This document shows, in pieces, positions 13,288-62,096 of a stretch of 64,000 bases of DNA. The translations under genes and the position numbers were made by a program. Every line of letters starts with the position of its first letter. Positions within the stretch are counted from its first letter, which is position 1. The notes below the pieces were generated by a model. It had not been told where the DNA came from. It saw only the letters and a program-made list of their open reading frames with translations, and made no database searches. Source of the stretch: Candidatus Woesearchaeota archaeon CG10_big_fil_rev_8_21_14_0_10_37_12 (GTDB lineage Archaea > Nanobdellota > Nanobdellia > Woesearchaeales > ARS49); contig PCYA01000014.1 in the NCBI GenBank assembly GCA_002762795.1, positions 1 through 64,000 of the forward strand, in the 5' to 3' direction.

Positions 13288-13767
13288 ATGAGTGAAAACA
13301 AAAAAGAAATGAAAGAAAAACAAACCGGGATTTATTTCCCAAGAGACCAACTAAAATCAGACCTGACAGAGAATCCAGGATACCAATTTAAGGTTGAACA
13401 AGCAGGAGATGGCATCCTTTATATTTCTCCCCCTAGAGGAATTAATAGATTCTGCCCTGAAGGAAAAAGTGAATCAGTTTTAAATTTAACAATAAGAAGA
13501 CTCTACGCAGGATTATCTGAAGAAGCAGCATATACCGTATTTTATTGCGCCGAGCATGACAAAGAAAAAATAATTGAAGAAGTATACGTACTTGGAGCGG
13601 ATCTTGAAGAAAGAAAAATCATAATGCATGAGCGCTCAGACCAAATAATTAATTCTTTGGACAATTTGCTTCTCAGAGATACAACACAGAAAGGAACCAG
13701 ATTAACTCTTGTAGAAGACCCTGAGTATTTGTTGAGTGGATATGCATGGGCGCCAGAGGTTGAATGA
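13288..13767 (+). CDS. Hypothetical protein
   Basis: ORF overlapping the start of the symporter; start placed at internal Met MSENKKEM. Confidence 0.6.
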   Translation: MSENKKEMKEKQTGIYFPRDQLKSDLTENPGYQFKVEQAGDGILYISPPRGINRFCPEGKSESVLNLTIRRLYAGLSEEAAYTVFYCAEHDKEKIIEEVYVLGADLEERKIIMHERSDQIINSLDNLLLRDTTQKGTRLTLVEDPEYLLSGYAWAPEVE

Positions 13768-15242
13768 TGGCATACATAACAGCTACTGAAGGTTTTGCGG
13801 TGCTTGCGGTTTTTGCAGCAATAATGATTGGTTTGGTTTATTTTTTGACAAAAAGAAAATTTAAGACAATTGATTTGTTTTTAGTTGCTGACAGGAATGT
13901 TTCTTGGTTTCGAGGAGCATTCAGCATTGCAGTAAGCTGGATTTGGGCTCCTGCATTGTTTGTTGCAAGTATGCAAGCGTACACGACAGGACTAGCAGGC
14001 GCATTTTGGTTTATTGTTCCAAATATTGCGTGTTTTTTCTTATTTGCTCCGCTAGCCATTCGCTTAAGGAGGTTGATGCCAAATGGATATACTTTGCCTG
14101 AATTTATTTTGAAAAGGTACAATAATGATAAACGAACGCATCTTGCCTTTTTGTTCATTTTTTTCGCATATCAGCTTGGCGCAATTATCATCAATGCATT
14201 GGCAGGCGGAACATTATTACATATTTTGACAGGTATGAATTTTCATATCGCAGTCATTAGTTTGTCCGTAATTGCATTAATTTATTCATTGATTAGCGGC
14301 CTTGAGGCATCTATTATTACAGATGTATTACAAATGGCTTTTATTTTGATAACGGGTTTTGTTCTTGTTCCTTGGGCCATTTTCACTGCAGGAGGTCTTT
14401 CAGCAGTTGCAGGAGGCTTAAGTGGCATTGCAGGTTCTTCATTTATTTTTGATCCTTGGATTGCTTACTCTTTTGGAATTGCGATGACTTTTGGTTTGTT
14501 ATCTGGTCCTATTGGTGATCAGATGTTTTTCCAGCGTGGTTTTGCTGTGAAGAAAAAGAACATCGTTAAAACATTTGTTGTTGGAGGTTTGTTGTTTGGT
14601 CTTGTTCCAATTACTTTAAGCTTGCTTGGTTTTGTTGCGGCAAATCCCCTAATTAACAGCGCATTAAGCATATCTGATCCGCAAATGGTTGCGCCTATTG
14701 TTATTGGTGCGTTTTTACCGAAGATCGCGTTGCTTTTGTTTGTATTCATGGCGTTTGCAGGGTTGTGTTCAACAATGGATTCTGCATATTGTGCAGTGAG
14801 TTCTCTTGGAACGATTGATATTTACAAGAAATACATAAATGCAAACGCGAGAAGCCAAAAATTGTTGCAAGTTTCTCGTGCTTTTATGCTTGGGATTGCT
14901 GTTTTCGGAACTGGAATTGCTTTGCTGCAACCTAAATTGTTGTGGGTGTTCCTTATTTATGGTGCATTATCTTCTGCTGGTTTGTTTCCAACAATTTTCA
15001 GTTTGTTCTGGAATAAATTGGATGCAAAAGGTGCGTTTTGGGCCGTTACGTTGTCTCTTGTGCTTGGCTTGCCACTCTCAATTTATGCAAATGTTGTTGA
15101 AAACACACATTTGATTGTATTGGCAGCAGTCTTGAGCGTGCTTATTGGATTAGTAGTTTGTTTGATTGCAGGAATTAGAAATAAAGAAAGATATAAGTTT
15201 ATTTTTTGTCAAGAACCACCCGTCAATAGACGGGTGGCATGA
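13767..15242 (+). CDS. Sodium:solute symporter (SSF family)
   Basis: Multi-TM protein with SSF-like pattern; last codons CQEPPVNRRVA lie in the inserted double-hairpin element. Confidence 0.88.
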   Translation: MAYITATEGFAVLAVFAAIMIGLVYFLTKRKFKTIDLFLVADRNVSWFRGAFSIAVSWIWAPALFVASMQAYTTGLAGAFWFIVPNIACFFLFAPLAIRLRRLMPNGYTLPEFILKRYNNDKRTHLAFLFIFFAYQLGAIIINALAGGTLLHILTGMNFHIAVISLSVIALIYSLISGLEASIITDVLQMAFILITGFVLVPWAIFTAGGLSAVAGGLSGIAGSSFIFDPWIAYSFGIAMTFGLLSGPIGDQMFFQRGFAVKKKNIVKTFVVGGLLFGLVPITLSLLGFVAANPLINSALSISDPQMVAPIVIGAFLPKIALLLFVFMAFAGLCSTMDSAYCAVSSLGTIDIYKKYINANARSQKLLQVSRAFMLGIAVFGTGIALLQPKLLWVFLIYGALSSAGLFPTIFSLFWNKLDAKGAFWAVTLSLVLGLPLSIYANVVENTHLIVLAAVLSVLIGLVVCLIAGIRNKERYKFIFCQEPPVNRRVA

Positions 15243-15422
15243 AGCGATAGCTTCATCTTTGCTTGTAATGACCAGTGGTTCCCAAGAAAATCCTCTGGAT
15301 TTTCTGGGCCAGAAAATGCTTTGCATTTTCTTGGCTTGAGCATGCTCAGAAATATACCAGATCACTATGGTAATAGGGACGTTGTCCATCAGTCAAATAG
15401 ACTGATGGTATATTTCTGACAT
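15208..15422 (+). repeat. Double-hairpin element copy A (215 bp, with nested 54-bp module)
   Basis: GTCAAGAACCACCCGTC...TTGAGCATGCTCAGAAATATACC...GGTATATTTCTGACAT; homologous to copies at 22493, 58252, 61366. Confidence 0.92.
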
Positions 15423-16005: not shown

Positions 16006-16103
16006 ATGTCAGAAATTCACAAAAGTTATTATTCTTTGTGTGAATTTCTGAGCATGCTCAAGAACTGCAAAAAAAGATATGTTTTTCTTGGCAGTTCTTA
16101 ACA
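16006..16103 (-). repeat. Double-hairpin element copy B (short, opposite orientation)
   Basis: ATGTCAGAAATTCACA...TGTGAATTTCTGAGCATGCTCAAGAACTGC...GCAGTTCTTAAC. Confidence 0.8.
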
Positions 16104-22336: not shown

Positions 22337-23074
22337 GTGGAAGTTGTTCTCTATATGGCAATGTCTGTTAATGGAATGATTGCTGATGAGAGCTGCAATG
22401 AAGATTTTCTTTCTGATGTTAACTGGAAAACGCTGATAGATCTTTCAGAAAAATATGGAGGGTTTATTATTGGCAGAAAAACGTATGACGCTGTCAAGAA
22501 CCACCGGTGATCGCTCCTTCGTCGCTCAACACCAGTGGCATGACTGTTCAGAAAATTATAAGAAAAATATGACCAGTGGTTCCCAAGAAAATCCAGAGGA
22601 TTTTCTGGGCCAGAAAATGCTTTGCATTTTCTTGGCTTGATCATGCTCGGAATACCGCTCGCTTCAGTAAACCACTCGTGATAAACACGAGTGGCATTCC
22701 GACATGTAAAAAAATGGGGAACTCCGAGCTTTGAGGATGTTCCTGGAATTAAAATTGTTGTTTCAAAAAATAAAAATCTAAATTTGCCTGAGAGTTACAT
22801 AGTTGCAACAAGCCCTGATGATGCGCTGGTAAAAGCAGAAAGTGCAGGTTTGAAAAGTGTTCTGCTTACAGGCGGTTCAATGTTAAACAGTGAGTTTATG
22901 AAGAAAAATCTGATTGATGAGATTGCTCTTAATATTGAGCCTGTTTTAATTGGAAAAGGTGTGCCTTTATTTGGAGAAAGTTCTTTTGAAAAAAAACTCA
23001 AGTTAATTGAAGTTAAAAAGATAGAAAAAGATATTTTGCAATTAAAGTATAAAGTAAGAAAGAAATATGATTAA
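22337..23074 (+). pseudogene. Dihydrofolate reductase/RibD C-terminal-like protein, interrupted by a double-hairpin element
   Basis: 5' part VEVVLYMAMSVNGMIAD...FIIGRKTYDAV (GTG start overlapping dnaJ stop region) and 3' part KKWGTPSFEDVPGIKIVVS...VLLTGGSMLNSEFM...LNIEPVLIGKGVPLFG; join is in frame when 22493-22705 is removed. Confidence 0.8.
22493..22705 (+). repeat. Double-hairpin element copy C (213 bp, with nested 54-bp module) inside the RibD/DHFR-like gene
   Basis: GTCAAGAACCACCGGTGATCGC...CCAGTGGTTCCCAAGAAAATCC...TTGATCATGCTCGGAATACC...GGCATTCCGACAT. Confidence 0.9.
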
Positions 23075-23131: not shown

Positions 23132-23232
23132 CGCCGCCGCTGGGATTTGAACCCAGATATCGCTGGCTGCGAATACGGTGATCTGACCGCAAACGCTTTC
23201 AGACCGTTGTCATACCTTTAGACTACGGCGGC
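23132..23232 (-). tRNA. Class II-like tRNA with putative 16-nt intron; Ser-like body (G73, long variable arm), anticodon ambiguous
   Basis: GCCGCCG/CGGCGGC acceptor, D arm GUC..GAC, anticodon stem ACGGU/ACCGU, variable arm UCGC-AGCCA-GCGA, T arm CUGGGUUCAAAUCCCAG, discriminator G. Confidence 0.9.
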
Positions 23233-35532: not shown

Positions 35533-35632
35533 CTATGCTAACTTTTGTTCAGTTCACGTATGATCTTTTTTTTCTAGTGTATAGTAAATTGCCTTAAATA
35601 TCGAACCTTTTAGCAATTTACTATATTTGAAA

Positions 35633-35729
35633 CGTCAGAAATTCACAAAATTTAATATGGTTTGTATGAATTTCTGAGCGTGCTCAAGAACTGTCACAAT
35701 TATTGATTATTTTTGACAGTTCTTGACAT
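35633..35729 (-). repeat. Double-hairpin element copy E (short, opposite orientation)
   Basis: CGTCAGAAATTCACAAAA...TATGAATTTCTGAGCGTGCTCAAGAACTGTCA...TGACAGTTCTTGACAT. Confidence 0.85.
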
Positions 35730-36795: not shown

Positions 36796-37446
36796 ATGAA
36801 ACTGGCAAGTATAAAAGCAATAGGTTTTGATTTAGATTATACACTATACCCGCAAAGCAAAGACATTCAAGAAAAAGTTGCTGATGAAGTAGCAAAACAC
36901 TTAGCAGGTGCTCAAAATCTACCGTTCGATGAAGCAAGAAAGAAATATGAGGAAACATATGCAAAGTTAAAAAGCGGCAAAGGAACACTACTCGCATTAG
37001 GCGTTGAAAATGCCCGAGAAGTCATGCAGAATTGTTTAGAATCTGCTGAACGTGTAGATTTCATAGAACAAAATGCAGAACTTGTGAAACTCATTGAACA
37101 GTTAAAAGAAAAAGTCGGCTGCGTTTTCCTCATAACTGGCAGTAGAAAGCATTTAGCAATTCCCATTCTTGAAAAGATCGGTTTGACAGAAAGCCATTTT
37201 GATCATGCAATTTATGGTCCTGACACTGAAGGTGATCATTTGATTAAGTTTAATGGAACAGCATTTGCAGAAATCGAAAGACTTACAGGTTTAAAACCAG
37301 AAGAACTTTGTTATGTGGGTGATAATCCAAAAATGGACATACATCCAGCGCATGCAAGAGGTTGGAAAACTATTTTAGTAAATGATAAAGATGATAAAGC
37401 AACAGTGTGTATTCAAGATATTTTGCATATTAAAGAACTAATTTAA
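36796..37446 (+). CDS. HAD-family hydrolase
   Basis: IGFDLDYTLYPQ...FLITGSRK...CYVGDNPKMDIHPAHARGWKTILVN. Confidence 0.9.
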   Translation: MKLASIKAIGFDLDYTLYPQSKDIQEKVADEVAKHLAGAQNLPFDEARKKYEETYAKLKSGKGTLLALGVENAREVMQNCLESAERVDFIEQNAELVKLIEQLKEKVGCVFLITGSRKHLAIPILEKIGLTESHFDHAIYGPDTEGDHLIKFNGTAFAEIERLTGLKPEELCYVGDNPKMDIHPAHARGWKTILVNDKDDKATVCIQDILHIKELI

Positions 37447-37705
37447 AGAGAGGATAGAAGCTCCTCTGGCTTTACCAGTTTCGCAATGTCCTCTCCTTAT
37501 CGCGAGTTTGCTCGCGTATTAGGAAATCTGAAATTTTGTTGTTTCCCAGATTTCCTATAAACCTCACCTGTGAATCTAAAAATTGAAAGCCAGACTGACG
37601 GTTTGCGCTTGCAAGTTTACTATAACTAGGGTGTTATAAAGAGGGGCAACCATTAGCCTAATGCGCGCAAGGAGCGCGACCCCTCTGTACTAATAATCCG
37701 ACAAA
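37446..37705. ncRNA. Candidate structured RNA (class unknown)
   Basis: Dense local hairpins: GAGAGGAT..GTCCTCTC, CTGG-CTTTA-CCAG, CGCGAG-TTTG-CTCGCG, GGAAATCTG..CAGATTTCC, GAGGGG..CCCCTC enclosing CATTAG/CTAATG and GCGC/GCGC; no credible ORF. Confidence 0.4.
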
Positions 37706-58251: not shown

Positions 58252-58412
58252 GTCAAGAACCACCCGTCAATAGACGGGTGGCATGAAGCGATAGCTTCAT
58301 CTTCGCTTGTAATGACCAGTGGTTCTTGAGCATGCTCAGAAATATACCAGATCACTATGGTAATAAGGACTCTGTCCATCAGTCAAATAGACTGATGGTA
58401 TATTTCTGACAT
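58252..58412 (+). repeat. Double-hairpin element copy F (161 bp)
   Basis: GTCAAGAACCACCCGTC...GTGGTTCTTGAGCATGCTCAGAAATATACC...GGTATATTTCTGACAT; identical by eye to 61366-61526. Confidence 0.95.
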
Positions 58413-61215: not shown

Positions 61216-62096
61216 ATGCCTAAAATTGCTGTTGCCCAGATTAAAATTTTTGATGAATTGAGCAAAAATGTAAATAAGGTTATTGAGTTTATAGATAGGG
61301 CTTCCATTAAGAAAGCAGATTTGGTTTGTTTTCCTGAATCTTGTTTAGGTAACGACTTTTTGAATGTCAAGAACCACCCGTCAATAGACGGGTGGCATGA
61401 AGCGATAGCTTCATCTTCGCTTGTAATGACCAGTGGTTCTTGAGCATGCTCAGAAATATACCAGATCACTATGGTAATAAGGACTCTGTCCATCAGTCAA
61501 ATAGACTGATGGTATATTTCTGACATATTAATGGTGCTGAGATAAGAAGTATTAGGGAGAAATGTAAAGAGAGTTCTATTTACTGTATTTTTGGTGCTCA
61601 TGCGAAAGATAAGGGAAAATTTTTCAATTGTGCTTTTTTAATTGATAGGAAAGGGAGGATTCAACATATTTATAAGAAAGTGAATTTATTTTCTGGTCTT
61701 GAGTTGGAGCAGACTTGTAATGGAGAATGGAATGGGGTAATAAAAACAGATTTTGGAGATATTGGGATAATTATTTGTTGGGATTTTGCGTTTCCAGAAC
61801 ATATTAAGAAACTTTCGAAAAATGGTGCACAGATTATTTTCTGTCCTTCTTATTTGTTAAAAAGTGCAAGAATAAGTAAAGATGTTTTTAGAAGTTATCC
61901 TCTTACCAGAGCTTTTGAGAATTTGTCATATTTTGTAACTTGTGATGCTTTTGGTAGCGATGTGATTTCTGAAAGTTATATTTGTAGTCCATTAAAGGTT
62001 TTGAATAAGATCTTACATCGAGAGGGTATTATTTTTGCGGATTTGGATTTGAAGAAAATTATTCAGTTAAGAAAAAAATACAATTGTTTGAGCTAG
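61216..62096 (+). pseudogene. Nitrilase/carbon-nitrogen hydrolase family gene interrupted by a double-hairpin element
   Basis: MPKIAVAQIKIF...ADLVCFPESCLGNDFLN // INGAEIRSIREKCKESSIYCIFGAHAKDKGKFFNCAFLID...YKKVNLFSG...IIICWDFAFPEHIKKL; Glu separated from Lys/Cys. Confidence 0.88.
61366..61526 (+). repeat. Double-hairpin element copy G (161 bp) inside the nitrilase gene
   Basis: Identical by eye to copy F; removal restores the nitrilase frame (161 nt, phase 2 shift matches the downstream frame). Confidence 0.95.

What the first reader, a model, noticed from the sequence alone, without database searches (positions are those of the whole stretch)
61366..61526. 161-bp double-hairpin element splits a nitrilase ORF; exact removal restores the frame
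Upstream frame ...CFPESCLGNDFLN ends at codon AAT (61363-61365). The downstream nitrilase frame resumes at ATT (61527) as INGAEIRSIREKCKESS. Removing GTCAAG...GACAT (161 nt, 2 mod 3) reconciles the two frames and rejoins Glu, Lys and Cys catalytic segments. The junction shows no obvious target-site duplication. This is either a recent gene-inactivating insertion or an intervening sequence removed or skipped at RNA or translation level.
Basis: partly seen in the sequence, partly recalled or inferred. Interest (0 to 1): 0.85.

Follow-up and report, generated by a model that had tools for sequence, protein, structure and literature searches.

The report
Jumping double-hairpin repeat breaks nitrilase gene
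A 161-base double-hairpin repeat, one of dozens of copies in this archaeon and a member of a repeat family found across its order, has jumped into a nitrilase gene and broken it; the family inserts precisely without duplicating its target, and the enzyme that moves it was not found.

Summary
61366-61526 is a discrete 161-nt insert that splits a nitrilase-family ORF. Taking out exactly 161 nt rejoins the frame, and the joined protein aligns without a gap across the junction to three relatives.

The insert is not unique. A 100% identical copy lies at 58252-58412, and the own genome holds 44 core sites. The core (GTTCTTGAKCAYGCTCRGAA) occurs in 56 of 380 phylum genomes, 54 of them in this archaeon's order, with no hits to the reversed control. 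Named hits that carry the arms are nearly all Woesearchaeota or related archaea.

Structure: TGTCAAGAAC-hairpin-GTTCTTGA-KCAYGC-TCRGAA-hairpin-TTCYGACA, with covarying arms. Three related empty sites show precise insertion with no target duplication, beside a flank consensus TNTYAA (44/106 exact against 1.9% background). Another copy sits in frame in an archaeal gatE-like gene.

Best reading: a non-autonomous mobile element, working like the SMR/PATE, REPIN and Rickettsia palindromic repeats, has inactivated this nitrilase. The mobilising enzyme is unknown: no Y1 transposase in the own genome, no autonomous parent found. Removal at RNA or translation level is unsupported.

The parts
61366..61526 (+). 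161-nt double-hairpin element inserted in the nitrilase gene (equivalently 61365-61525, one shared T)
61216..61365 (+). 5' part of the broken nitrilase-family gene (N-terminal 50 aa, catalytic Glu motif FPE)
   Evidence: PF00795 profile 1-43, E 2.8e-6
61527..62096 (+). 3' part of the broken nitrilase-family gene (Lys and Cys motifs)
   Evidence: PF00795 profile 60-256, E 7.6e-20
61366..61443 (+). hairpin 1 half: GTCAAGAACC ... GGTTCTTGA
61436..61455 (+). conserved core GTTCTTGAGCATGCTCAGAA
61450..61524 (+). hairpin 2 half: TCAGAAATATACC ... GGTATATTTCTGA
61526..61531 (+). target hexamer TATTAA (TTAATA on the minus strand), fits the flank consensus TNTYAA
58252..58412 (+). second copy, 100% identical, intergenic
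15208..15422 (+). 215-nt family member with an extra inserted hairpin block; its first bases form the end of ORF 13764-15242
22493..22705 (+). 213-nt family member with an extra hairpin block
16006..16102 (-). shorter family member with unrelated hairpin interiors (5' end diverged: GTTAAG)
35632..35727 (-). shorter family member with unrelated hairpin interiors

Best explanation
The 161-nt segment is a recent insertion of a non-autonomous mobile element into a nitrilase-family gene, which it has inactivated by frameshift and an early stop. It belongs to a family of double-hairpin repeats (units of about 50 to 340 nt) spread through an order of DPANN archaea. Shown: the anatomy, covarying hairpin arms, precise insertion of one unit without target duplication, and a flanking target consensus TNTYAA (TTRANA on the other strand). 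Inferred: the unit moves as single-stranded DNA, its hairpins recognised by a transposase supplied in trans (HUH/Y1-like), joining after TTRANA at the target and after the element's own TTGACA end. I put about 45% on that enzyme class; the confidence below is for the mobile-insertion reading.
For: 100% identical copy with unrelated flanks 3 kb away and 44 core sites in the genome. Order-wide family with zero control hits. Three related empty sites all fit loss of exactly one unit with no duplication. Target consensus 44/106 against 1.9% background, flank already present in the empty sites. Gap-free protein alignment across the junction only when exactly 161 nt are lost. Hairpin 2 arms paired 96.5% against 51% shuffled. 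In-frame copy in a gatE-like gene absent from 20 homologues. ISDra2 precedent for TTGAT-directed insertion without duplication (PMC2806898).
Against: No Y1 transposase in the own genome; only weak association of Y1 genes with the family in the order (p = 0.03, uncorrected for phylogeny); no autonomous parent with the same ends in about 50 Y1 loci. The hairpins start 2-4 nt from the ends, closer than I recall for IS605-type left ends. No DNA-level empty site for the nitrilase itself.
Confidence: 0.88

Rival explanations
1. The element is an intervening sequence that is spliced out of the mRNA or bypassed by the ribosome, so the nitrilase is still made.
For: Removal restores the frame exactly and no other damage is seen in either half of the gene.
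Against: Exact restoration is what any duplication-free insertion gives. The identical copy at 58252 is intergenic, most copies lie outside long ORFs, a gatE-like copy is read through in frame. No bulge-helix-bulge is apparent at the ends. Three nitrilase-family paralogues remain in the genome.
Confidence: 0.03
2. The family is a structured non-coding RNA or a terminator/regulatory element kept by selection, and its presence in the gene is incidental.
For: Strong hairpins with covariation, 20-nt core conserved across the order.
Against: Copies at unrelated sites, variable copy number including none, identical recent copies, precise empty sites and a target rule all indicate mobility. No Rfam match. 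Some copies may still have been recruited for regulation.
Confidence: 0.05
3. Assembly artefact: the repeat was wrongly placed in the gene by the assembler.
For: Contigs C14 and C6 end inside copies of this repeat, and one copy on C9 contains a run of N, so the assembler did struggle with it.
Against: The insert has exact family boundaries, sits at a correct target hexamer and lies between flanks that read on as one gene.
Confidence: 0.04

Closest known systems
Small mobile repeats (SMR) and palindrome-associated transposable elements (PATE) of Haloquadratum walsbyi (PMC3119063)
   Same: Archaeal, about 50-200 nt, no coding capacity, palindromes at the ends, no target duplication; SMRs have inverted ends and an unknown mobiliser; PATEs have a short target sequence at one side.
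   Different: Unrelated host lineage; one 20-nt core conserved across an order; PATEs are tied to IS605-type transposons, while here no parent was found.
REPINs and GTAG/CGTC-tagged REPs, including Rickettsia palindromic elements (PMC3116915, PMC3733652)
   Same: Two hairpin units in inverted order, a short tag at the hairpin foot (TGTC here), many copies, some inside genes in frame; CGTC-tagged REPs also lack a dedicated transposase.
   Different: Tag is TGTC, not GTAG or CGTC; hairpin interiors are long and hypervariable; the pair is one fixed unit; the host is archaeal.
ISDra2 and the IS200/IS605 insertion sequences (PMC2806898)
   Same: Insertion 3' of a short target (TTGAT there, TTRANA here), no target duplication, subterminal hairpins at both ends.
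   Different: No tnpA or tnpB inside; no Y1 transposase in the own genome; hairpins almost at the very ends.

Membership tests
SMR (small mobile repeat, as defined in PMC3119063) | inverted terminal repeats, no target duplication, too short to code for a transposase | tested here: met
   TGTCA...TGACA ends, three duplication-free empty sites, 161 nt
SMR (small mobile repeat, as defined in PMC3119063) | ends unrelated to known transposons | tested here: inconclusive
   No match to ends of about 50 Y1 loci; other transposon classes were not compared
PATE / IS605-derived element | near-terminal palindromes and a short target sequence at one side without duplication | tested here: met
PATE / IS605-derived element | ends shared with an IS605-type transposon | tested here: not met
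   Y1 loci of the order carry no such ends; none in own genome
REPIN mobilised by a RAYT | GTAG-type tag at the hairpin foot | tested here: not met
   Tag is TGTC at both hairpins
REPIN mobilised by a RAYT | RAYT (Y1) gene in the genome | tested here: not met
   PF01797 absent from the own genome
Classical MITE of a DDE transposon | terminal inverted repeats with target-site duplication | tested here: not met
   Inverted ends present, no duplication at three empty sites
Archaeal BHB intron | bulge-helix-bulge at the exon-intron boundaries | tested here: not met
   Predicted fold gives two separate hairpins and no such motif
Any mobile element | excision or transposition observed | not testable with these tools
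   needs culture or biochemistry

The most novel reading that the evidence does not exclude
The family is moved by an enzyme outside the known transposase classes (for example a host recombination or replication protein acting on single-stranded hairpins), which would explain high copy number in a genome without a Y1 transposase, precise insertion without target duplication and a core conserved over a whole archaeal order.
Probability: 0.15. Interest if true: 0.75.

Novelty: new variant of a known kind. Interest (0 to 1): 0.45.

Why it matters
It turns an apparent split gene into a defined mobile-element insertion and exposes an order-wide repeat family in DPANN archaea, for which I found no report in the open-access papers searched. 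The three empty sites and the target rule make the mechanism testable, and the missing mobilising enzyme is a concrete open question. It also warns gene callers: copies of this family break some genes and add in-frame codons to others.

Tried and rejected
Rfam at gathering scores: nothing at the element. Y1_Tnp and the TnpB zinc finger in the own genome: absent. Y1 loci of the order searched for the same ends: no parent; motif hits in L231 and L234 were not element ends on inspection. A 3-nt duplication (AAT), or a longer element ending at ATTAA (167 nt lost), was considered because it also keeps frame; rejected because the empty sites of other copies already hold that flank and the protein aligns gap-free only with the 161-nt removal. 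L116 and L188 looked like broken genes in the frame test but on reading are intergenic or at a gene end. IMG/VR: no core. Bacterial core hits other than one Aminicenantes MAG lack the arms and look like chance. Empty-site candidates L179/L108, L156/L198 and L198/L114 were not clean and are not used. Paper searches found no report of this family, but the library is open-access only.

Full report
What was claimed. The sequence bears this out. Each half separately matches the carbon-nitrogen hydrolase family PF00795, and the segment folds far better than shuffled sequence (z = -6.6).

Is the junction right? Homologues in related genomes and three paralogues in the own genome show a loop of variable length after the FPE motif. 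With the flanks joined, the window protein aligns without a gap across the junction to L076, L077 and L078: DFLN|INGA against EFVD|FDGK, EFVD|YNHK and NFED|VGKQ. The closest relative, in G035 (47% identity), has a longer loop. The protein evidence therefore favours loss of exactly 161 nt over 167 nt, which would also keep frame.

A repeat, not a singleton. The element has a 100% identical copy at 58252-58412 and many full or partial relatives in the genome: 49 matches by blast, and 44 core sites at up to 3 mismatches with 0 for the reversed control. They share TGTCAAGAAC - hairpin 1 - GTTCTTGA - KCAYGC - TCRGAA - hairpin 2 - TTCYGACAT. Units in the set run from about 50 to 340 nt, because the hairpin interiors vary and gather further hairpin blocks.

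Spread. The core with at most 1 mismatch is in 56 of 380 genomes of the phylum, 54 of them in the own order, with no control hit. That the own genome is a woesearchaeote is an inference: contigs of several same-family genomes have the length of named Woesearchaeota records found with the same core. No hit in IMG/VR.

Structure is maintained. Inside the conserved stems, hairpin 2 arms pair in 96.5% of positions over 92 distinct members against 51% when arms are shuffled between members (maximum of 1000 shuffles 59%); hairpin 1 is weaker, 81% against 70%. The variable R of TCRGAA goes with the Y of TTCYGA: A-T 71, G-C 22, A-C 13, G-T 0. Related copies are not independent, so these figures are descriptive. 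The A-C cases would be G-T wobbles on the minus strand, a weak hint that the minus strand is the one that folds.

How it inserts. Joining the flanks of other copies and comparing them with homologous sequence that lacks the element gave three related empty sites: L031 against window 37444-37689, L191 against L175, L130 against L138. In all three the best fit is loss of exactly one unit, with a single shared T kept and no base duplicated or lost (identity 0.80, 0.71 and 0.98 at offset 0; next best 0.65, 0.66 and 0.77). Beside the 3' end, TNTYAA stands at 44 of 106 sites against 1.9% background, and the flank is present in the empty sites, so it is target and not element. On the minus strand this reads TTRANA|TGTC...TTGACA|: the target resembles the element's own end. 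ISDra2, of the IS605 group, inserts 3' of TTGAT (PMC2806898). The nitrilase copy follows the rule (TATTAA on the plus strand).

Effects on genes. Most copies lie outside long ORFs. Besides the nitrilase, L191 carries a copy inside a small ORF that is open in L175, and L148 carries a 54-nt copy in frame in an archaeal gatE-like gene, adding about 18 residues that are missing from the 20 homologues aligned over that region. The gatE name rests on my reading of the sequence, not on a family search. In-frame palindromic repeats are known from Rickettsia (PMC3733652). The 161-nt copy is not a multiple of three, so the nitrilase is most likely inactive.

What moves it. Not found. The own genome has no Y1 transposase and no TnpB zinc finger by Pfam. 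In the order, Y1 genes and the core are only weakly associated (26 of 54 against 47 of about 149, p = 0.03 without phylogenetic correction; the second figure assumes that the two samples share about 203 order genomes). About 50 Y1 loci, some overlapping, showed no element with the same ends. The single-strand transposase model is therefore an inference by analogy.

Verdict. The finding is real and its insertion reading is right; the intron or bypass reading is not supported. In how it works, the closest known things are the SMR and PATE repeats of Haloquadratum (PMC3119063), REPINs and tagged REPs. In membership, it fails tests for a RAYT-mobilised REPIN, for an IS605 derivative with a known parent and for a classical MITE; it meets the descriptive definition of an SMR, with the comparison to other transposon ends left open. 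I rate it a new variant of a known kind.

Noticed in passing
15208-15422 and ORF 13764-15242: The last residues of a sodium/solute-symporter-like ORF (CQEPPVNRRVA) are read from a copy of the element, so the insertion seems to have replaced the natural C-terminus.
   Followed up: partly
37444-37689: Another repeat, about 85% identical to sequence around C4:80690 and similar to stretches on C14; it served as an empty site for the element.
   Followed up: partly
23132-23232 (-): Rfam finds a tRNA of about 101 nt (52.7 bits) that ARAGORN misses; the length suggests an intron-containing archaeal tRNA.
   Followed up: no
L148:5802-5857: A 54-nt family member lies in frame inside an archaeal gatE-like gene, adding about 18 residues.
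   Followed up: yes
L109, L149, L167, L190 (JACQMS genome): Tandem copies of the hairpin 1 plus core half, 81 bp apart, suggesting partial duplication of the element.
   Followed up: no
L144 (Aminicenantes MAG JAFCCF010000018.1): A full two-arm family member in a record titled as a bacterium; binning contamination or horizontal transfer.
   Followed up: no
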